DNA of 46,397 bases from the IMG/VR virus record IMGVR_UViG_3300010883_000062, positions 1 to 46,397 of that record. One strand, given 5' to 3'. The stretch comes from a virus. The stretch's first letter is position 1. Each line of letters opens with the position of its first letter. The translations under genes were made by a program, and so were the position numbers. The notes below the pieces were generated by a model. That model ran no database searches. It was not told the DNA's origin and was given only the letters and a program-made list of their open reading frames with translations. This document shows, piece after piece, positions 28,910-45,831 of the stretch.

Positions 28910-29005
28910 ATGGCATATGGCAAGTCTACCAAAAAACTTTCTGCATCAAGCATGAAGTCTAACAAAACACCCATGAAAAAGAAACCCAAGGGTAAGAAAA
29001 AGTGA
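28910..29005 (+). CDS. 31-aa lysine-rich peptide
   Basis: The frame reads MAYGKSTKKLSASSMKSN... and ends in a run of Lys (PMKKKPKGKKK). AAAGGAAAAA precedes the ATG at good spacing. Its TGA overlaps the GTG start of the methyltransferase gene, so the two are coupled. It has 12 Lys and no acidic residue, so it probably binds nucleic acid or an acidic protein surface. It could also act only as a leader for the next gene. Confidence 0.6.
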   Translation: MAYGKSTKKLSASSMKSNKTPMKKKPKGKKK

Positions 29006-30165
29006 GTTATTCGGTCAGCATTGACTTAATCGACACAGTGACCCCTTTCGAGAATAACCCTCGTCAGATCACACCAGATGCGATTTCGAAGGTGGCAAAA
29101 TCTATTGAACTGTACGGATTTCGCTCACCTATCGTGGTTGATGATGACCGAATAATATTAGCTGGTCATACTCGCCTGTTAGCAGCCCAGAAATTAGGTC
29201 TAAGCGAGGTTCCTGTTCATGTTGCAACTGGACTAAGCAAAGCCAAAAAACGCGCTTATAGGCTGGCTGATAACCGCAGCGCGGAAGAAAGCCGCTGGGA
29301 TTTTCCCATGCTTACAGAAGAACTTGGCGAATTAAATGAGATGGGCTTTGATTTAGCCGACACTCTTTTTGATCCAGAAGAAATTTCAAATCTGTTCCCA
29401 GATGAACCGATTGAAGGTTTAACTGATGAAGATGAAGTTCCAGAAGTCCCAGATGTACCAGTTACCGTTGAGGGTGATTTCTGGACGCTTGGCAATCATA
29501 GGCTGATGTGTGGCGACAGTACAAGTATTGATGCAGTCGAAAAGTTAATGAATGGCGCAAATCTAGAAATGATATTTACTGATCCACCTTACGGAATGAA
29601 TGCGGTGAGTAAGTCGGGCGTTTTAAGTAAGAAATATTCAGACATTATTGGAGACGATAACTCAAATGTTGCTAAAGAAACTTTTTTATTAATTCATGGA
29701 TTATATGCAGATGTTAACCAAATCTGGTGGGGGGCAAATTATTATTCTTCAGTTTTGCCCGATAGTGAATGTTGGTTGGTGTGGGATAAAAATAACGGAG
29801 GAAGTGACCAGACGGATTGTGAATTGGCGTGGTCAAATTGTAGAAGTGTTGTGCGAAAGTTTACGCAATCAAGCGAAAAAAAAGACAGAGTTCACCCAAC
29901 TCAAAAGCCTGTATCATTAGTTGAATGGGCTATTAATAAATTTAAAGTTAGTCCAAAAACAATTGCTGATTTTTTTGGTGGTTCTGGTTCTACGTTAATT
30001 GCGGCTGAAAAGAAAAATATAAATTGTTTTTTGATGGAATTTGATCCTAAATATTGCGATGTGATCATCAAAAGATGGCAAGATTTCACAGGTAAAGTCG
30101 CAGTTTTAGAGGAAACATCTGAAACTTTTGAGTCATTGAAAGCAGTTAGATGCAAGGCCGCTTAA
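29002..30165 (+). CDS. ParB-like nuclease domain fused to DNA N4/N6 methyltransferase
   Basis: 387 aa with a GTG start overlapping the preceding TGA. N-terminal ParB/Srx-type domain: FENNPRQITPDAISKVAKSIELYGFRSPIVVDDDRIILAGHTRLLAA. C-terminal methyltransferase: catalytic TDPPYGMN (motif IV), then VHPTQKPVSLVEWAI and IADFFGGSGSTLIAAEKKN (motif I, FGGSGS) in the beta-class order. It methylates DNA, probably to protect phage DNA or alter host regulation. No partner restriction endonuclease is visible, so it is an orphan. Confidence 0.88.
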   Translation: MSYSVSIDLIDTVTPFENNPRQITPDAISKVAKSIELYGFRSPIVVDDDRIILAGHTRLLAAQKLGLSEVPVHVATGLSKAKKRAYRLADNRSAEESRWDFPMLTEELGELNEMGFDLADTLFDPEEISNLFPDEPIEGLTDEDEVPEVPDVPVTVEGDFWTLGNHRLMCGDSTSIDAVEKLMNGANLEMIFTDPPYGMNAVSKSGVLSKKYSDIIGDDNSNVAKETFLLIHGLYADVNQIWWGANYYSSVLPDSECWLVWDKNNGGSDQTDCELAWSNCRSVVRKFTQSSEKKDRVHPTQKPVSLVEWAINKFKVSPKTIADFFGGSGSTLIAAEKKNINCFLMEFDPKYCDVIIKRWQDFTGKVAVLEETSETFESLKAVRCKAA

Positions 30166-37149: not shown

Positions 37150-37537
37150 AGATGTTGAAAAAATCCCTGCGAAACGTGGGCGTAAAAATCACGCCGTAAC
37201 AATCGAAAAACAAAATCTTGTGAAACTCTGTATGGCATCTGGTTTCAACCAAGAGGATACCGCGAAGTGTCTTACAATAGATTTAAAAACATTACGAAAA
37301 TATTATACTGACCAATTAAAGTCAGGGCGTGCTCAAGCCAATGTTCAAGTTGTTGCTTCCTTATTTAAACAGGCTTGTAAAGGTAACGTGCAAGCTGGAA
37401 TATACTGGTCAAAGGTACACATGGGCTGGCGTGACAACAGCGAAGCAGCCACAGTCATTAACATTGCTCCACAGCGCATTGAAGCACCTGTTATAGAAGG
37501 CGAAGTTATTGACCTTGATGCAATCACTAATCAGTGA
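37142..37537 (+). CDS. terS: Terminase small subunit
   Basis: 131 aa from the ATG at 37142. N-terminal basic region (KIPAKRGRKNH), an HTH (VKLCMASGFNQEDTAKCLTIDLKTLRKYYTDQLKSG), and the motif FKQACKGNVQAGIYWSKVHMGWRD, typical of phage small terminases. It binds the packaging site and delivers DNA to TerL. It overlaps terL by 20 bases. An upstream in-frame start would overlap the zinc-ribbon gene further and is not needed. Confidence 0.8.
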   Translation: MLKDVEKIPAKRGRKNHAVTIEKQNLVKLCMASGFNQEDTAKCLTIDLKTLRKYYTDQLKSGRAQANVQVVASLFKQACKGNVQAGIYWSKVHMGWRDNSEAATVINIAPQRIEAPVIEGEVIDLDAITNQ

Positions 37538-38771
37538 GGACGTTGTCCGATTATCGCGCCCACAAATGTTGGTCGCCCAATCGCGCACACGCTTTCGTGT
37601 GCTGGTCGCAGGGCGGCGAACTGGTAAGTCGTTCCTATCACGTTTTATGTTGTATCAACGCGCTAGGAGCAACGCTAACAACGTGTGCTGGTATGTTGCT
37701 CCGACATATCGAATGGCCCGACAAATTATGTGGCGAGATTTAAAATATCATGTGCCAGTACATGAAGTCCAAAAAAAAGACGAAACCGACCTCAGAATTG
37801 AGTTGGTTAATGGTTCTATTATTGCTTTGCGCGGTGCTGATAATCCCGACTCTTTGCGTGGGGTTGGTCTTGATTTTCTGGTCATTGATGAAGTCCAAGA
37901 CGTGAATCCCGAAACATGGACTGCCGTACTTAGGCCAGCAATGGCAGATCGAAGTGGGTCAAGGGCTGTATTCTGTGGAACACCAAAGGGCTACAATTGG
38001 TTTTATGATTTATATAATGGCTCTGGCGAACAAGACGATTGGGAAAGTTTTAGATTTAAAACACTTGATGGCGGCAGGGTTGCATCTTCAGAAGTCGAAG
38101 CCGCCAAGCGCAGCATGGATGAACGGCTGTTCAGACAGGAGTTTGAGGCATCATTCGAAACGCAAGGTGGGCGCGTTTATCATGCGTTTGAGAGATCGTT
38201 CAATACTGCGGAATGTGAGGACACTGGCGGCACTTTGCACATTGGCATGGATTTCAACATTAATCCTATGTCGGCGGCTATCTGCGTAGAGGCTGGAAAA
38301 GAGCTATGGGTGATTGATGAACTGTCGATTGCTGATGCGAATACGGATGTGATGGCACAAGCGTTAAAAACACGCTATAATGACAGGCACATGGTTGTCT
38401 ATCCAGACCCAAGCGGCAAGGCAAGAAAGACCAGCGCGGCGGTAGGGCAGACAGATTTCAGTATATTAGAGAGCTACGGTTTTGACGTAGTGGCAAGTAA
38501 TAAAGCCCCACCAGTTGTGGATCGCATCAACGAGGTCAACGCGATGCTCTGCAATAGTGACGGTGAACGCCGCTTATTCGTCGATCATAAATGCAAACAC
38601 CTCATTAAATCGCTTGAAGGCCTAATTTACAAAGAAGGCACAAATATGCCTGACAAGGCTTCTGGCTTGGATCACATGGCTGACGCAATGGGGTATCTCA
38701 TTCACGAAATGTATCCGATTGATAATAATCAGGCAGTCGGCCCGATGAAAATTGCAAATTACTTTGGATGA
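37518..38771 (+). CDS. terL: Terminase large subunit
   Basis: 417 aa from the ATG at 37518 (a TTG at 37509 is an alternative). Walker A AGRRTGKS at residues 31-38, Walker B FLVIDEVQD near 120, coupling motif FCGTPKG, and nuclease domain starting at GMDFNINPMSAAICV (about 242), with LFVDHKCKHLIKSLEGL and a final acidic helper in DHMADAMGYLI. It packages DNA into the prohead using ATP and cuts it. Length is normal. Confidence 0.95.
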   Translation: MQSLISEDVVRLSRPQMLVAQSRTRFRVLVAGRRTGKSFLSRFMLYQRARSNANNVCWYVAPTYRMARQIMWRDLKYHVPVHEVQKKDETDLRIELVNGSIIALRGADNPDSLRGVGLDFLVIDEVQDVNPETWTAVLRPAMADRSGSRAVFCGTPKGYNWFYDLYNGSGEQDDWESFRFKTLDGGRVASSEVEAAKRSMDERLFRQEFEASFETQGGRVYHAFERSFNTAECEDTGGTLHIGMDFNINPMSAAICVEAGKELWVIDELSIADANTDVMAQALKTRYNDRHMVVYPDPSGKARKTSAAVGQTDFSILESYGFDVVASNKAPPVVDRINEVNAMLCNSDGERRLFVDHKCKHLIKSLEGLIYKEGTNMPDKASGLDHMADAMGYLIHEMYPIDNNQAVGPMKIANYFG

Positions 38772-38779
38772 GGTGAACC

Positions 38780-40201
38780 ATGCCAGTTAATGCACAGCAT
38801 AGAGAATACGAAGAATATAAAATTCAGTGGAAGCGGATTCGTGATGCTATCGCTGGTGAGGATGCCATCAAAAAGGCAGAGATTGAACACTTGCCCCGAC
38901 CCGCAGGGCAAGACGGATACGACTATAAGCAATATTTAAAACGTGGTCTGTTTTATGGCGCGTCAGGCCGTACAGTGCAGGGGCTGGTTGGGGCCATATT
39001 TCGCAAAGACCCGATATTAAATGTTCCATCACGCATTGAGCCAATGTTGAAAAACATCACATTGACAGGCTTACCGTTTTCAAATTTAGCAAAAATGACT
39101 ATTGAAGAAATAATTTCTATGGGCCGCTGTGGTGTATTGGTTGACAGGCCAACAAGCGAAGATGGTCAAGCATATCTGCGGCTATATCCAGCCGAAAGTA
39201 TTATTAACTGGCGCACCATCAATGTTGATGGAGTGGAAAAGCTAGAACAGGTCATATTGCACGAAGAACGACAAAGGGCTGAAAGTGATGGCTTTGGCAC
39301 AGAGTTTTATAATGTCTATCGTGTTTTAAATTTAACAGATGAAGGCTACGAGGTCAGCGTTTACGAAGAGGGCGAGGATAAAAACGGTGATTTGGCGCAT
39401 ACTGAAGTGGAAAGTTTTGAGCCACGAAAGCGCGGCGAAAGGTTAGATTACATTCCCTTTATTTTCATAAGTCCAAATGATCTAACTCCACCTGTTGATA
39501 AATCGCCTATTCTTGACTTGGTAAATGTAAATTTATCTCATTACAGAACACAGGCAGATTTAGAGCAAGGCAACTATTTAACATCAAGCCCAACCCCTTA
39601 CATTGTGGGACAGAAAAACGCTGAAAATGCGGCTTGGTCAATTGGCTCTGGCACTATCTGGTTTTTAAGCGAGGGCGCGTCAACAGGAATGCTGGAATAT
39701 ACTGGTGCTGGCTTATCGTTTCTTGAAAACTCATTAGATCGCAAGCAGGGTATGATGGCTTTGCTAGGCGCAAGGTTGCTTGAGGAGTCAAAGCGCACCG
39801 CAGAGGCCGCAGAAACACTAAGAATTAGAGGTAGTGGCGAAAGCAGCATATTGTCCAGCATTGCTGACACAGCGTCTGATGGGCTTACTCAGGCGTTGAA
39901 ATGGGCGGCTGAATGGGAAGGGGTGGATGCTGAAATTAGTGTTGAACTGAATAAGGACTTTATGGATTCGAAGTTGTCACCACAGGAATTAACGGCACTT
40001 GTGCAAGCATGGCAGTCGGGCGCAATGGGTCAAGCGGATATGCTTTACAACTTGCAGCGCGGTGAAATGCTGCGACCTGATATAAACATCGAAGATTTAC
40101 AAGACGAAATCGAACAGGAAACGTCACTTGAACGTAACGAAGTCGTAGATAATGATGACGATGAAGAACTTACTGAGCCAGTAGATATTGCAGCGGAGTA
40201 A
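38780..40201 (+). CDS. Portal protein (DUF4055 type)
   Basis: 473 aa, starting 8 bases after terL with GAGGTGA upstream. The pattern EYKIQWKRIRDAIAGED, RPAGQDGYDYKQYLKRGLFYGASGRTVQGLVGAIFRK, ISMGRCGVLVDRP, YRTQADLEQGNYLTSSPTPYIVG and AEAAETLRIRGSGESSILSSIA is that of DUF4055 portal proteins. It forms the dodecameric DNA channel at the head vertex. Its acidic C-terminus (DNDDDEELTEP) is usual. The MuF gene follows after 5 bases. Confidence 0.88.
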   Translation: MPVNAQHREYEEYKIQWKRIRDAIAGEDAIKKAEIEHLPRPAGQDGYDYKQYLKRGLFYGASGRTVQGLVGAIFRKDPILNVPSRIEPMLKNITLTGLPFSNLAKMTIEEIISMGRCGVLVDRPTSEDGQAYLRLYPAESIINWRTINVDGVEKLEQVILHEERQRAESDGFGTEFYNVYRVLNLTDEGYEVSVYEEGEDKNGDLAHTEVESFEPRKRGERLDYIPFIFISPNDLTPPVDKSPILDLVNVNLSHYRTQADLEQGNYLTSSPTPYIVGQKNAENAAWSIGSGTIWFLSEGASTGMLEYTGAGLSFLENSLDRKQGMMALLGARLLEESKRTAEAAETLRIRGSGESSILSSIADTASDGLTQALKWAAEWEGVDAEISVELNKDFMDSKLSPQELTALVQAWQSGAMGQADMLYNLQRGEMLRPDINIEDLQDEIEQETSLERNEVVDNDDDEELTEPVDIAAE

Positions 40202-40206
40202 GATAA

Positions 40207-43200
40207 ATGGGTATCAAGCCAAAGATTGCTCCAAGCACAGTCAATGTTAGCGATAAGGTTCAAGACCTTTCTATTGTCCACGCTATAAATTTAGAAAGAA
40301 TAAAAGCGGATCAGGTCAACGGTGTTCTTGATATTCTGGATGATCTGGGGCTTTCGATACAAAAGCAATTGGAAAAGATTGACCCGACAGGCGTGGGGCC
40401 AACATATAGAGCGCGGCGGCTGGCTAGATTGCTTGAGGGCGTTAAAGCGACAACCAAGCAACATTTCGGCAAAGCACAGGGCGCAAATAGCAAGGGTCTG
40501 GGCAAGGTTTCTACTGTCAGCGCAAAAGCTACACAAAACATCATTAACGGCTCTCTGGGCGTGTCTCTGGGGGCCACACTGCCATCTGCGGCTGTATTGT
40601 CCTCATTGGCAGGGCGTACACTTGTCGAAGGTCAGATAGTTAAGGATTATTGGAAGCAGCAAAGCGCAGAGCATACTGGTAAATTTATGCGGCAAATGCG
40701 GATGGGTGTTGCTGGCGGCGAAAACTTGCAAAGTCTGATCCAGCGAGTGCGCGGCACAAAAGCCAATAATTTTACTGATGGTATTATGAACTCAACCAAG
40801 CGTAAGGCTGAAACCCTTGTTCGTTCATCTGTTGCAGCGGTAAACAACGAAGCCTTGATTAATACCTATCAGGCAAACGAAGATTTGTTTAACGGTTATC
40901 AATGGATGGCTACGCTGGACAGTCGCACCAGTGACATATGCAAAGCGCGGTCTGGTTTAACGTGGGATAAAGAGTTTAAGCCTGTGGGTCATGCGATAGG
41001 CTGGACGCCACCCCCTGCACATTTCAATTGTCGATCAACCGTGATTGGGATTTTAAAGCCGTGGTCTGATTTGGCGAATAAGCCCTTGCCAGCGGTTGGG
41101 GCTGAAACGCTTAAAAAAGAACTGGAAAAGTCGTTATTATCTCGCGGTCTTTCCCAAGCACTTATCAGCAAGGCAATTAATAAAACGCAACAATCAATGG
41201 ATGGCTATGTCGCTGGAAATATAAACTTTGAGGATTGGTTAAAATCAAAATCAGAACGCTTTCAAAAGCAAATATTAGGTGAGCCTAAATGGGAGTTATG
41301 GAAAAGCGGTAAAATCGGGTTTGTTGATTTAGTTGACCAAAAGTCCAACCCCAGATCACTAGCTGAACTTGAGGCTTTGGTTGATAAAGGAAGAACTGCA
41401 CCTCTTAAAGCAAACAAGGCGGCAAAAGAAGCAGCAAAGGGACAAGCGGAAGCGGCTGCACTAGCGGTTAAGGCTGCACAAAAAGCTGAAAACAGGGCGC
41501 AAGCGCAATTAGATGATATTATTGCTGGTACGGCTGGGACAAATAAAAGCAAAGTATATTCTAAATTAAAAAAAGATGGGATTGATGGATTAAGCGCAAC
41601 ACAAATTATTGCTAAAATTGATGAGGGTGTGACTCAAATCAATGTGAGTGCAAATATATCCAAAGCTAAGAAAAAACTAAAAGACGGAAAAAAGCTAAAC
41701 AAGACGGAAGAAGCAGCATGGGCAACTGTAGACGATGATCTAAAAGCTGTATACTTAGCAAGTCTTGAGGCTGAAAGTGCAATATTTAAAACGTTTCAAG
41801 ACAAAATTGATAATCTTCAAGAGATAAAAGAAATAGCATTATCAACAGGTGCTATTCAAGACTGGGCATCAATGGGTGCCGTTAATAACGCAAAGAAAAT
41901 ATTAGCAAACCACAAAGATGAACAAGTCGGGAAGTTTATTCTCCCCAAAGATGATTATATTTCAAAAGAAATAAATAAAATTATAAATAAAAATGACATT
42001 GAGTTCTTAGAAAAGTTGGTTGGTTTTGATGGTTATATGAGTTTAAAAGCTAAAAAATCAATACTCTCAAAAGCAGAAGCAGAAGCGTATATTTCAAAAT
42101 ACGATGAAGTTATGGCGTTAGCGCAACAAGTTGTTTCAAAAGACAAAGAAATAAAAGCAGCGGCAAAAGCAATATCTGATAGTTTTATCAACCAATTGGG
42201 CGTGGCTAAAACTCTTTATAAGGGTGATCCAGATACTTTTAATTTTAGCAAGTATGGAACACCAGACAATATAAAAGAATTTTATATAAAATCAGGGCCA
42301 AAGGTTGCCAAGCATAATTTTGACGCAATAACTGACCATCTGGCAAATGACATTAAAAGAGCCAATGATAAACTATTTGCATTACAAGAAAGGCAAATAA
42401 ATAAAGCCACACAATACCTGTCAGGCGCTGCACAAGGGGGCAAGGGTTTTTCTGCGGCAAATGCGGCTTATAAAAAATTAAAGAAGTCTGGAGGGCTAAC
42501 AGGCGATGCACTGGTTGATGCCGCGAAAGTACAAGCTGAGAAAGATGCAATACAAGCCGCAGCTTCGTTAGCATCTGTTAAAACAGGTATTAAGAAAAAA
42601 TTTAAAGAAAATAAAAAGCTATCACCAAAAGAACAACAGGTGTTCGATGATCTTGATCCAGTAGATCAAGACCTTCTAAAAGAGGCCGCTAGTGCTGGAA
42701 AGACCGCCAAGCAGTTAGATGATGATGCAGCGGCTATTGTTACCCAGAAGGCCACACAACGCGCAGACGAGGGTGTTCTGTTCGATGATCTGGAACAGAT
42801 TGGAGATCAAGACGGTTCAAACACTGGTGGCTTATTTAAAAGCAAAGTTGATGGCAATAAATTTTATGTAAAAGCACCTGATACAGAAGTAATGGCAAAA
42901 GTAGAAGTTTTATCGTCAAAACTATATCAAGCGGCTGGCGTTAAAGTAGCAAACGTAAACTCTATAAAATTAACAGGTAAGATTGGAGATCGTGATGTAT
43001 CAGGGCGGCTTGGTGTTACCAGCGCAATCGAAGAAATAGAAGATATTGACACTTCTCAAATGGGCGCATTATCGGGGGCTAAAGATGGTTTTGCGGCTGA
43101 TGCTTGGTTGGCGAATTGGGATGTAGTCGGCAACGGTGGGCCAAAACAACTAAATTTAAAAAAGATGCCAGATGGTTCCAGCTTCCGTATCGATACTGGC

Positions 43201-45441
43201 GGCACGTTGTTCTTTAGGGCGCAAGGTGGGCGTAAGGCGTTTTCTGCTTCTGAGATACCAGAGTTAGATAGCCTGAGATTTAACAGCTATAATTCTGGCG
43301 AGGTCTTTGGGGATATAAGCGAAGAACAAATTGTGGCTGGTGTGGCGCGTATCGTTGCAATTAGCGATGATGATATTCGGCGGCTTGTAAAAGACACAAT
43401 GGGCGATGATGCCGATGATCTGGCTGAAGTGCTTATAGGCCGAAAGAACGTGCTACAAGCGACCTATGCCAAGCAGCTTGCAAAGTATAACAAAAAGGTA
43501 AAACGCTCACCACTGGAGCGTGTGACAAAGCAAGAGGAACAACTTATTAAAGAAAGCCGTGTCAACGGTTACATTATGACTTCTGACAAAGGCGATATTG
43601 AAGATCACGAAATTAGGGCAAGTTATTTAAAGCGTAAAGGAAAAGCCATAACGCAGTTAAATTTACGCTTGCGTCCTGACGCTATGCAGAAATTACAAAA
43701 AACTTTGATTGTTCAGTCAGACAGTGGGCTTCCTAAAATTGAAATGGAATCTGTTAATGCGTCAGTGAAAAGAGGTATTCGTGGAATTATGGCAAGGGGA
43801 AATGCTGGCAGTCCGTTTCGAGACGTTGATTTTGAACGATCAAATTTAGCTATTAAATACATCGAAGATAAGAAAAAAGAAATTGAAGATTTAGTCTCAC
43901 AAGGCAGAGCAAAATCAGATGATTTGTATCGTTTTGAAGCCGAGACAGGAAACGTTTTAAATATTTATAAATCATTTTTATCAAGATATAAGGTTGGCGA
44001 TATAAAGCTAGAAAAGGACGTTTTATTTAAAGATAAATTCTCTGATTTATTTGATATTGAACAAATACCGTTGACTAAGGTGAACGTTGCAAAAAAAGTA
44101 GTTTGGACAGACCAAGGCGAAGCGAAGTTTTATAAGTCCTCATTTCGGGATAGTTACTCAGAACAAGATGGAGAGAGATTTACAACACTTGGAACTGTTT
44201 TTGATACAGAAGTAGATGGGGTCAGAGTTCGATATTTTCCAGAAAATCAAAGTGAAAGTCATGCTGCTTTAGTTGGGCGCATGGAAGTTGAAATAGATGG
44301 TACATCTGCGGTTGAAATTAAAAAGGGTTTAGGTGTCATTGAGCAACTTGGCATTGATGCCTCAAGGTCAACGGCAATGGATCGTGAGGAATTGTATTTA
44401 ACAAAAATATTTTATCATTTCAGTGGAGTAAAAAGTGACAACCACGGCACTGATCGTTATGCTTTAGCTTTTAAAGAAGAAATGATACTAATTTCTAAAA
44501 TTGGCTCGCAAAATGAGAGAATTAAAGAGTTGAAGAAGTTGAGTTCAAATGTGGCTGATGTTAAGGATATTACAGCTTTGCCAATGTATAATCCTGTCGG
44601 AGAATTTCAACAGTTTGGGCATGGAAAAGCGTTACAGCTAAACCCTGTTTTTCAAGGAAAAGAATGGGAAAAGTTTCACGACGATCATCGTATATGGCAC
44701 GATTTGGAATATGGAAAAGGCTGCCATACTCAAGTTGGAAGTTTTAAGGCAATAGTTGGCGGCGGCGGTCAACTTGCGTCAACAACGGATCGAATGAGAA
44801 GAGGGATACCTTTTGGCCAAGGTGGTTCAGAAAAGCCAGATATAAAGTCTGGGGGAGCATCATATATTTTCAGCAGACTTAGGGAAAAGAGCGACATTGG
44901 CCGTAATCTTGGTCTTGTTTGGAAAACCAATAATCATGTAAGGAGACTTGATGCTATGTCATTTAAGTCTGATTATTATGGATCGCAAAAATTTTCCAAT
45001 GGGAACGTTTACAAACAATATGATAAATTAGATGATTGGGATGTTTCTCTACAAGAAAGGGCCGTTGATTTACAAGCCTTCAAAAATCATGCGTCAGGTA
45101 ATGATAATAATGAAATAATATTTAAAGATGGACTTTCATTATTTGAAGATTTGGAATTTTTTGTGGTTCGACCTAATGAAAAGCAAGATATTTTGGACTT
45201 TTTAACAGAAAAAGGATACAAGAAATGGCCTGATGGAAGGAAATTTGAAGAGGTGATTGTCACTAGAGATGATATTAGAAATTTAGTATTGGGAAAGGAA
45301 AACGCTGATAAAATTTTAAGTGCTAAAAAACTAAATCTTAAAAAGGCTTATGCTGACGCTGGCGTTGATTCAGATACGGCTAACGATTTAATTGAAATTG
45401 ATTTAGATATTGATATTGATTTAGATGATGATGTTCTGTAA
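40207..45441 (+). CDS. Giant MuF-type head protein with kinase-like and candidate toxin domains
   Basis: 1744 aa, far longer than the 250-500 aa usual for MuF proteins. Residues ~130-385: MuF/SPP1 gp7 domain (RSSVAAVNNEALINTYQ, TLDSRTSDICKARSGL, GWTPPPAHFNCRST, EPKWELWKSGKIGFVDLV). ~390-870: Lys/Ala-rich helical linker. ~874-1090: HipA/PI-kinase-like segment (GGLFKSKVDGNKFYVKAP with K889, EVLSSKLYQAAGVKV, DAWLANWDVVG with D972, FRIDTGGTLFF with D996). ~1100-1450: two unrecognised domains. ~1500-1690: possible ADP-ribosyltransferase-like domain (STTDRMRRGIPFGQGGS; NEIIFKDGLSLFEDLEF, E1636). The tail is acidic. It is probably injected with DNA. Confidence 0.8.
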   Translation: MGIKPKIAPSTVNVSDKVQDLSIVHAINLERIKADQVNGVLDILDDLGLSIQKQLEKIDPTGVGPTYRARRLARLLEGVKATTKQHFGKAQGANSKGLGKVSTVSAKATQNIINGSLGVSLGATLPSAAVLSSLAGRTLVEGQIVKDYWKQQSAEHTGKFMRQMRMGVAGGENLQSLIQRVRGTKANNFTDGIMNSTKRKAETLVRSSVAAVNNEALINTYQANEDLFNGYQWMATLDSRTSDICKARSGLTWDKEFKPVGHAIGWTPPPAHFNCRSTVIGILKPWSDLANKPLPAVGAETLKKELEKSLLSRGLSQALISKAINKTQQSMDGYVAGNINFEDWLKSKSERFQKQILGEPKWELWKSGKIGFVDLVDQKSNPRSLAELEALVDKGRTAPLKANKAAKEAAKGQAEAAALAVKAAQKAENRAQAQLDDIIAGTAGTNKSKVYSKLKKDGIDGLSATQIIAKIDEGVTQINVSANISKAKKKLKDGKKLNKTEEAAWATVDDDLKAVYLASLEAESAIFKTFQDKIDNLQEIKEIALSTGAIQDWASMGAVNNAKKILANHKDEQVGKFILPKDDYISKEINKIINKNDIEFLEKLVGFDGYMSLKAKKSILSKAEAEAYISKYDEVMALAQQVVSKDKEIKAAAKAISDSFINQLGVAKTLYKGDPDTFNFSKYGTPDNIKEFYIKSGPKVAKHNFDAITDHLANDIKRANDKLFALQERQINKATQYLSGAAQGGKGFSAANAAYKKLKKSGGLTGDALVDAAKVQAEKDAIQAAASLASVKTGIKKKFKENKKLSPKEQQVFDDLDPVDQDLLKEAASAGKTAKQLDDDAAAIVTQKATQRADEGVLFDDLEQIGDQDGSNTGGLFKSKVDGNKFYVKAPDTEVMAKVEVLSSKLYQAAGVKVANVNSIKLTGKIGDRDVSGRLGVTSAIEEIEDIDTSQMGALSGAKDGFAADAWLANWDVVGNGGPKQLNLKKMPDGSSFRIDTGGTLFFRAQGGRKAFSASEIPELDSLRFNSYNSGEVFGDISEEQIVAGVARIVAISDDDIRRLVKDTMGDDADDLAEVLIGRKNVLQATYAKQLAKYNKKVKRSPLERVTKQEEQLIKESRVNGYIMTSDKGDIEDHEIRASYLKRKGKAITQLNLRLRPDAMQKLQKTLIVQSDSGLPKIEMESVNASVKRGIRGIMARGNAGSPFRDVDFERSNLAIKYIEDKKKEIEDLVSQGRAKSDDLYRFEAETGNVLNIYKSFLSRYKVGDIKLEKDVLFKDKFSDLFDIEQIPLTKVNVAKKVVWTDQGEAKFYKSSFRDSYSEQDGERFTTLGTVFDTEVDGVRVRYFPENQSESHAALVGRMEVEIDGTSAVEIKKGLGVIEQLGIDASRSTAMDREELYLTKIFYHFSGVKSDNHGTDRYALAFKEEMILISKIGSQNERIKELKKLSSNVADVKDITALPMYNPVGEFQQFGHGKALQLNPVFQGKEWEKFHDDHRIWHDLEYGKGCHTQVGSFKAIVGGGGQLASTTDRMRRGIPFGQGGSEKPDIKSGGASYIFSRLREKSDIGRNLGLVWKTNNHVRRLDAMSFKSDYYGSQKFSNGNVYKQYDKLDDWDVSLQERAVDLQAFKNHASGNDNNEIIFKDGLSLFEDLEFFVVRPNEKQDILDFLTEKGYKKWPDGRKFEEVIVTRDDIRNLVLGKENADKILSAKKLNLKKAYADAGVDSDTANDLIEIDLDIDIDLDDDVL

Positions 45442-45462: not shown

Positions 45463-45831
45463 ATGGCTACAATCGAAATTATAAAAGCCCTGCGAAATGA
45501 TGGTTTTATATATTGTGAAGAAATGGTTTTGACCAATTTTGTGTCGAAAGGTAACGATCACATTTTAATGTTTGGAACTTGGTTTGACACAGAAACGTCG
45601 AGTTATGGCAATGAGCGCAGAGTGTTTGACGCACCTATTGAACTTATTGCAGATAATTTGATGGGCTTTAGAGCGTGGAAAATAGATCGTTTTATTTTGC
45701 AAGGTTTTAGCGAAAAAGATAGTTCAAATGAAAATTTATATAAAATATTTGAAGCTGTTCAAGAAGTAAAAAGCCGCCTCAAATATGACTTCGAAGCGGC
45801 TCAAGAAAACATTATGCAGAAGTTTGATTAA
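45463..45831 (+). CDS. Hypothetical 122-aa protein, candidate immunity partner
   Basis: It starts 21 bases after the giant MuF gene on the same strand. Sequence ATIEIIKALRNDGFIYCEEMV, HILMFGTWFDTETSSYGNERRVFDAPIEL and a helical acidic end (FEAVQEVKSRLKYDFEAAQENIMQKF). No family is recognised. In MuF polymorphic toxin systems the antidote gene often follows the toxin directly, so an immunity role is a hypothesis based on position. It could equally be a head-completion protein. Confidence 0.5.
   Translation: MATIEIIKALRNDGFIYCEEMVLTNFVSKGNDHILMFGTWFDTETSSYGNERRVFDAPIELIADNLMGFRAWKIDRFILQGFSEKDSSNENLYKIFEAVQEVKSRLKYDFEAAQENIMQKFD

What the first reader, a model, noticed from the sequence alone, without database searches (positions are those of the whole stretch)
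40207..45441. A 1744-residue MuF head protein that reads like an injected multi-domain effector
Seen: a clear MuF domain is followed, in one uninterrupted frame, by a long Ala/Lys linker, a segment with kinase-like landmarks (K889, D972, D996 in FYVK, ANWDVVG, RIDTGG), two unrecognised domains and a C-terminal region with R-rich, Ser-Thr and NE(I)IF motifs that recall ADP-ribosyltransferases. Known: MuF proteins can carry C-terminal toxins (MuF polymorphic toxins), and some phages inject ADP-ribosyltransferases with their DNA. Inference: this protein modifies host targets at infection, and may combine phosphorylation with ADP-ribosylation.
Basis: partly seen in the sequence, partly recalled or inferred. 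Interest (0 to 1): 0.78.

Follow-up and report, generated by a model that had tools for sequence, protein, structure and literature searches.

The report
Phage head protein carrying two enzymes
A very long head protein of an uncultivated bacterial virus carries a well-preserved kinase and, at its end, what is probably an ADP-ribosyl-transferring enzyme, so the virus likely injects two host-modifying enzymes on one protein together with its DNA.

Summary
The ORF is real (40207-45441, 1744 aa): a MuF minor-head domain directly after the portal gene, an Ala/Lys-rich linker, a kinase domain (861-1105), a fast-evolving middle region and a C-terminal domain (1456-1690). The kinase reading holds. AlphaFold (pLDDT 93) places the fold among kinases, nearest the HipA-like kinase CtkA. 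K889/E900/D972/N983/D996 are kept in at least 111 of 113 non-redundant relatives, and the domain is the most constrained part of the protein (omega 0.02). The ADP-ribosyltransferase (ART) reading is probable, not shown. E1636 is invariant (65/65), and H1498, Y1553 and E1636 sit where an H-Y-E ART puts its triad. Most telling, of 91 complete kinase-bearing proteins 35 end in this domain and 27 carry a recognised ART, never both. The two ends changed places at least 8 times on the kinase tree, sometimes on the same MuF-kinase-middle scaffold. No fold or profile search linked the C-terminal domain to a known ART. MuF-ART fusions are known; I found no description of a HipA-like kinase family tied to ADP-ribosylation enzymes in phage virion-type proteins. 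Most likely a virion-delivered kinase + ART effector; substrates unknown.

The parts
40207..45441 (+). whole gene: MuF - linker - kinase - middle region - C-terminal ART-like domain, 1744 aa
40624..41106 (+). MuF minor head domain core (residues about 140-300; PF04233 163-280)
41107..42786 (+). Ala/Lys-rich linker (residues 301-860); its first half is still part of phrog_241
42787..43521 (+). HipA/CtkA-like kinase domain (residues 861-1105)
   Evidence: AlphaFold pLDDT 93.2; Foldseek vs PDB, top match CtkA, other listed matches kinases; HipA_C matches 26 of 58 relatives; omega 0.02
42871..42873 (+). K889, ATP-binding lysine candidate (113/113)
42904..42906 (+). E900, partner glutamate candidate on the following helix (113/113)
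43120..43122 (+). D972, catalytic aspartate candidate in ANWD (112/113)
43153..43155 (+). N983, metal-binding asparagine candidate (111/113)
43192..43194 (+). D996, metal-binding aspartate candidate in RIDTGG (111/113)
43522..44571 (+). middle region (residues 1106-1455); its first ~120 residues are shared with relatives that end in an R-S-E ART; fast evolving
44572..45276 (+). C-terminal ART-like domain (residues 1456-1690)
44698..44700 (+). H1498, first residue of the proposed H-Y-E triad (58/63)
44863..44865 (+). Y1553, second residue of the proposed triad (61/65)
45112..45114 (+). E1636, invariant glutamate (65/65)
45277..45438 (+). acidic C-terminal tail (residues 1691-1744)
38780..40201 (+). 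portal protein gene directly upstream
45463..45831 (+). 122-aa ORF directly downstream, family unknown, found only in the closest relatives; candidate cognate (immunity or accessory) protein

Best explanation
A virion-delivered two-enzyme effector. The MuF part builds the protein into the head next to the portal; the rest enters the host with the DNA (inferred from MuF biology). The HipA/CtkA-like kinase domain has a complete active site and is most likely active (fold and residues shown here; activity and substrate not shown). The C-terminal domain most likely transfers ADP-ribose from NAD+ to a host macromolecule with an H-Y-E type active site (inferred). The kinase is the constant module while its partner varies (R-S-E ART, Scabin-like ART, this domain, Nudix), so it most likely acts on something common to all these systems: a constant host target, or the ADP-ribosylation reaction or its products. 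The middle region and C-terminal domain are exchanged between phages as a unit and probably set the target.
For: MuF domain and portal neighbour. Kinase model pLDDT 93.2; 138 PDB matches at E<=1e-3, top one CtkA 7.5e-6 and the other listed ones kinases. Invariant kinase residues in 113 non-redundant relatives. HipA_C found in 26 of 58 relatives. omega 0.02 for the kinase and 0.078 for the C-terminal domain against L003. 91 complete kinase proteins: 35 end in this C-terminal domain, 27 carry a recognised ART, 9 carry Nudix, none carries both this domain and an ART. MuF-kinase-middle-ART proteins L037, L040, L057 nest among MuF-kinase-middle-C-terminal-domain proteins (weak forks), L113/L114 are sisters with different ends, and at least 8 changes between the two ends are needed. 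L109 is MuF + kinase + ART by Pfam. PF03496 lies in the kinase ORF of isolate phages, one recorded as particle-associated. E1636 65/65, H1498 58/63, Y1553 61/65, placed on or beside predicted strands in the order of an H-Y-E ART. Published: MuF-ART fusions and head-packaged ARTs (PMC9503650), MuF toxins (PMC5576092).
Against: No PDB match for the 1098-1744 model (best E 0.4) although the PDB holds many ARTs. No profile match of the C-terminal domain to R-S-E ARTs, Tpt1 or PARP1; the PARP1 score lies inside the shuffled range. Invariant R1580, D1582, D1589 and G1592 are not explained by the ART reading. No virion proteomics for this phage. Labels in the kinase tree are clustered and several of its forks are weakly supported.
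Confidence: 0.62

Rival explanations
1. Kinase as in-cis regulator. The ART-like domain is the only host-directed effector; the kinase phosphorylates or otherwise modifies its own polypeptide (linker, middle region or ART) to keep it silent in the producing cell or to switch it on after injection.
For: The kinase is far more conserved than its partners and stays with unrelated ART types; K-rich linker and variable middle region lie on either side of it.
Against: Kinase domains also occur with Nudix and without any recognised ART, including separate Nudix-kinase genes next to WGR-kinase-ART genes.
Confidence: 0.2
2. MuF polymorphic toxin used between competing phages or bacteria: the middle and C-terminal part is an exchangeable toxin and the downstream 122-aa ORF its immunity protein.
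For: Identity to L003 falls from 96% to 52-81% behind the kinase and stays low through the downstream ORF, so both were probably exchanged together; small ORFs behind MuF toxin genes are typical (PMC5576092).
Against: The downstream ORF is found in only 8 close loci of more than 80; no integrase among the window genes scanned with PHROGs, so temperate life is not shown; most C-terminal-domain relatives lack this ORF.
Confidence: 0.15
3. The C-terminal domain is not an ART but another enzyme or a binding domain that merely occupies the same end of the protein.
For: No PDB fold match and no profile match to any ART tried; weak BFVD matches are uncharacterised giant-virus proteins.
Against: Complete mutual exclusion with real ARTs and repeated exchange; invariant Glu and H-Y-E order on the predicted secondary structure.
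Confidence: 0.28
4. Purely structural extension (capsid decoration or DNA-packaging aid) with a dead kinase fold.
For: It is part of a head protein.
Against: All five kinase landmark residues kept in at least 111 of 113 relatives and omega 0.02; same kinase in unrelated head and non-MuF proteins with ARTs.
Confidence: 0.04

Closest known systems
MuF polymorphic toxins (PMC5576092)
   Same: N-terminal MuF domain, C-terminal enzymatic cargo, C-terminal part exchanged by recombination, small ORF behind the gene; ARTs are among their known toxin domains
   Different: cargo holds a HipA-like kinase plus a second, unclassified domain; no known toxin model matches it; temperate phage not shown
Phage T4 Alt and other head-packaged ARTs (PMC9503650)
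   Same: ART delivered from the head with DNA; [quoted passage not shown]
   Different: adds a kinase on the same chain; the C-terminal domain is not detectably of the Alt/VIP2 R-S-E type
Polyvalent proteins (PMC5512222)
   Same: one injected polypeptide with several enzymatic domains, some with kinases or ARTs
   Different: their kinase group is defined by loss of the C-terminal subdomain and by a conserved His before the catalytic Asp; here a helical C-terminal lobe is predicted and the residue before D972 is Trp
HipA-family kinases, structure of Helicobacter pylori CtkA (PDB 3akl, 3akk)
   Same: closest solved folds; Lys, Glu, Asp, Asn, Asp landmarks
   Different: about 13% identity, TM-score about 0.5; no HipB partner seen; found inside phage head proteins
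PARP and other H-Y-E ARTs
   Same: His, Tyr and Glu in the same order and in comparable places of the predicted secondary structure; a strand that starts with Asn-Glu
   Different: no significant profile or fold match

Membership tests
MuF minor head proteins | match to PF04233 / TIGR01641 over curated cut-off | tested here: met
   48.1 bits vs 29.6 and 53.3 vs 39.65
MuF minor head proteins | next to portal and terminase genes | tested here: met
   portal 38780-40201, large terminase 37509-38771
MuF polymorphic toxins | C-terminal domain that is a known toxin | tested here: inconclusive
   no Pfam/NCBIfam/PHROG hit behind residue 633 other than chance-level ones; relatives carry PF03496
MuF polymorphic toxins | small immunity ORF behind the gene | tested here: inconclusive
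   122-aa ORF present, co-diverges with the C-terminus, only in close relatives
MuF polymorphic toxins | temperate phage | tested here: inconclusive
   no integrase among the window genes scanned with PHROGs; not every ORF was scanned and the record is possibly a fragment
Protein-kinase-like superfamily | kinase fold | tested here: met
Protein-kinase-like superfamily | conserved Lys, Glu, Asp, Asn, Asp | tested here: met
HipA family (PF07804) | match over the curated cut-off | tested here: not met
   window protein does not match at all; 26 of 58 relatives match at E<=0.1, best 1.5e-5, and the one bit score seen (15.3) is under the 30.5 cut-off
HipA family (PF07804) | closest fold is a HipA-type kinase | tested here: met
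   CtkA is the top match; that CtkA is HipA-like is from my own knowledge
Polyvalent-protein kinase group of PMC5512222 | C-terminal subdomain lost; conserved His before the catalytic Asp | tested here: not met
   six helices follow D996 in the model; W971 precedes D972 in 110 of 113
ART superfamily, H-Y-E clade | conserved His, Tyr and Glu | tested here: met
   58/63, 61/65, 65/65
ART superfamily, H-Y-E clade | ART fold | tested here: inconclusive
   strand/helix order fits, but no PDB match
ART superfamily, H-Y-E clade | profile similarity to a known ART family | tested here: not met
   R-S-E set, Tpt1 and PARP1 compared; N4-like, ORF28 and p0068-like families not compared
ART superfamily, R-S-E clade | R, S-[ST]-S and E-x-E motifs | tested here: not met
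   alignment shows no such conserved set

The most novel reading that the evidence does not exclude
A dedicated family of HipA-like kinases works together with ADP-ribosylating enzymes in phage virions: the kinase acts on the ADP-ribosylation reaction or its product (host target, ADP-ribosyl group or the ART itself), ARTs of at least three kinds are combined with it, and the C-terminal domain here is a new ART family.
Probability: 0.35. Interest if true: 0.82.

Novelty: new variant of a known kind. Interest (0 to 1): 0.62.

Why it matters
Head-packaged ARTs are known, but a kinase that stays with ARTs of different kinds, and with Nudix and WGR domains, across unrelated phages and prophages points to a shared biochemical step between phosphorylation and ADP-ribosylation at the start of infection. 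It gives a defined, conserved domain to test and a simple criterion (113 kinase sequences, 65 C-terminal domains) for finding such effectors in phages whose MuF extensions carry no annotation.

Tried and rejected
Direct Pfam, NCBIfam, PHROG and PDB sequence searches of the regions behind MuF gave nothing. PARP (PF00644) was sought in own, related, host and 397 bacterial genomes without a usable set. Profile comparison of the C-terminal domain with R-S-E ARTs, Tpt1 and PARP1 failed. Foldseek of the 1098-1744 model: nothing in the PDB; in BFVD only uncharacterised giant-virus proteins at E 0.005-0.01, and which domain they match is not reported. R-S-E reading of the C-terminus rejected on the alignment. 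Paper searches for HipA with MuF or ART in phages found nothing relevant.

Full report
Observation. The reading frame 40207-45441 is open and codes for 1744 residues. It starts 5 bases behind the portal gene (38780-40201), which follows the large terminase (37509-38771). The window is an IMG/VR virus record of 46,397 bases with siphovirus-like tail genes (tape measure, distal tail, central tail fibre), RecT-like, RusA-like and primase/helicase genes. The MuF assignment is firm. Nothing behind residue 633 matches any family or solved sequence directly.

Relatives. A scan of IMG/VR with the kinase segment gave 256 relatives, 19 isolate phages and 49 places in bacterial genomes, among them Pseudomonadota, Actinomycetota, Melainabacteria and a Planctomycetota bin. 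Local profiles for kinase, middle and C-terminal segments gave the architectures.

Kinase. AlphaFold on 52 sequences gives pLDDT 93.2 and pTM 0.90. Foldseek finds 138 PDB matches at E<=1e-3; the top is CtkA (7.5e-6) and the others listed are kinases. In 113 non-redundant domains K889 and E900 are invariant, D972 is kept in 112, N983 and D996 in 111. HipA_C matches 26 of 58 members, weakly. The domain is the slowest part of the protein (omega 0.02 against L003). I conclude: a kinase fold with a complete active site, nearest to HipA-type kinases, membership in PF07804 itself not met. Whether it phosphorylates, AMPylates or does something else cannot be told.

C-terminal domain. In 65 non-redundant copies E1636, R1580, D1582, D1589 and G1592 are invariant; H1498 (58/63) and Y1553 (61/65) nearly so. 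In the model of 1098-1744 (pLDDT 85.7), H1498 ends a strand that is followed by a helix, Y1553 begins a strand in GGASYIF, and E1636 begins a strand that is followed by another strand. This is the order of an H-Y-E ART such as PARP (comparison with PARP is mine; PARP1 letters confirmed). Profile tests against PARP1, Tpt1 and R-S-E ARTs were negative, and Foldseek against the PDB was negative for the multi-domain model. So the ART assignment does not rest on detected homology.

Positional evidence. Of 91 non-redundant complete kinase proteins, 35 carry this C-terminal domain, 27 a recognised ART (R-S-E type or Scabin-like), 9 a Nudix domain, and none carries both the C-terminal domain and an ART. 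Four proteins (L037, L040, L057, L120) have MuF, kinase and the start of the middle region but end in an R-S-E ART. In the kinase tree L037, L040 and L057 fall among proteins with the C-terminal domain, though several forks are weak; L113 and L114 (Endozoicomonas) are sisters with different partners, and at least 8 changes between the two states are needed. L109 (Contendobacter) is MuF + kinase + ART by Pfam, L115 (Nonomuraea) is Phage_min_cap2 + kinase + ART. In isolate phages Dolphis, ST4 and fHe-Yen8-01 an ART-like C-terminus lies in the kinase ORF (below cut-off in ST4), and the last is recorded as particle-associated. Interchange at one position with real ARTs is the main reason to call the domain ART-like.

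Exchange. Against L003 the DNA is mostly 87-99% identical through portal, MuF and kinase (the end of the linker falls to 71-87%), then 52-81% from about 43,750 on, including the downstream 122-aa ORF. dS rises from 0.18 in the kinase to 0.93 and 2.6 in the middle and C-terminal parts. This is a sharp border between a conserved delivery-plus-kinase part and an exchanged end.

Mechanism. Shown: MuF fusion, active-site conservation, family-wide link of the kinase with ADP-ribosylation enzymes, modular exchange. Inferred: packaging and injection, ART activity of the C-terminus, host targets. The constancy of the kinase against changing partners suggests a constant substrate; in-cis regulation is the main rival for the kinase's role.

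Known and new. MuF toxins, MuF-ART fusions and polyvalent proteins are described (PMC5576092, PMC9503650, PMC5512222). The library held no paper joining HipA-like kinases with MuF or ARTs in phages; most subscription papers are not in it. I rate it a new variant of a known kind.

Noticed in passing
L051:778-6663, also L052, L054, L059, L063, L069: Two adjacent genes each with this kinase domain: a large one ending in an R-S-E ART (several with a WGR domain before the kinase), and a short one, in most of them Nudix-kinase. A recurrent two-gene set that links kinase, ART and Nudix.
   Followed up: partly
window 45463-45831: 122-aa ORF behind the MuF gene, no family match, diverges together with the C-terminal half (65% DNA identity to L003 against about 96% in MuF and kinase) and is seen only in 8 close loci.
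   Followed up: partly
L123, L124, L142, L152, L153: Chromosomal kinase proteins of Pseudomonas of the syringae group, several with a Nudix domain behind the kinase; context not examined.
   Followed up: no
L125, L134, L135, L137, L139, L144, L148: Proteins of 2,700-3,100 aa from Gastranaerophilales and other gut bins with the kinase about 550 residues from the C-terminus; end domain unidentified.
   Followed up: no
window 29002-30165: ParB-like domain joined to a DNA methyltransferase in one ORF (phrog_498 and phrog_620).
   Followed up: no
window 43498-45438 (model of residues 1098-1744): Best viral structure matches are small uncharacterised proteins of giant viruses (Tupanvirus, Pithovirus, mimivirus), E 0.005-0.01, prob 0.99-1.00; the matched part is not known.
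   Followed up: partly
L086:5901-8684: Pseudanabaena phage Pan1 head morphogenesis protein carries the C-terminal domain and part of the middle region without the kinase.
   Followed up: partly
L085:7668-13200: Gordonia phage Forza has the kinase in one gene behind the portal (gp78) and a PF03496 ART in a separate gene two genes on (gp80).
   Followed up: partly
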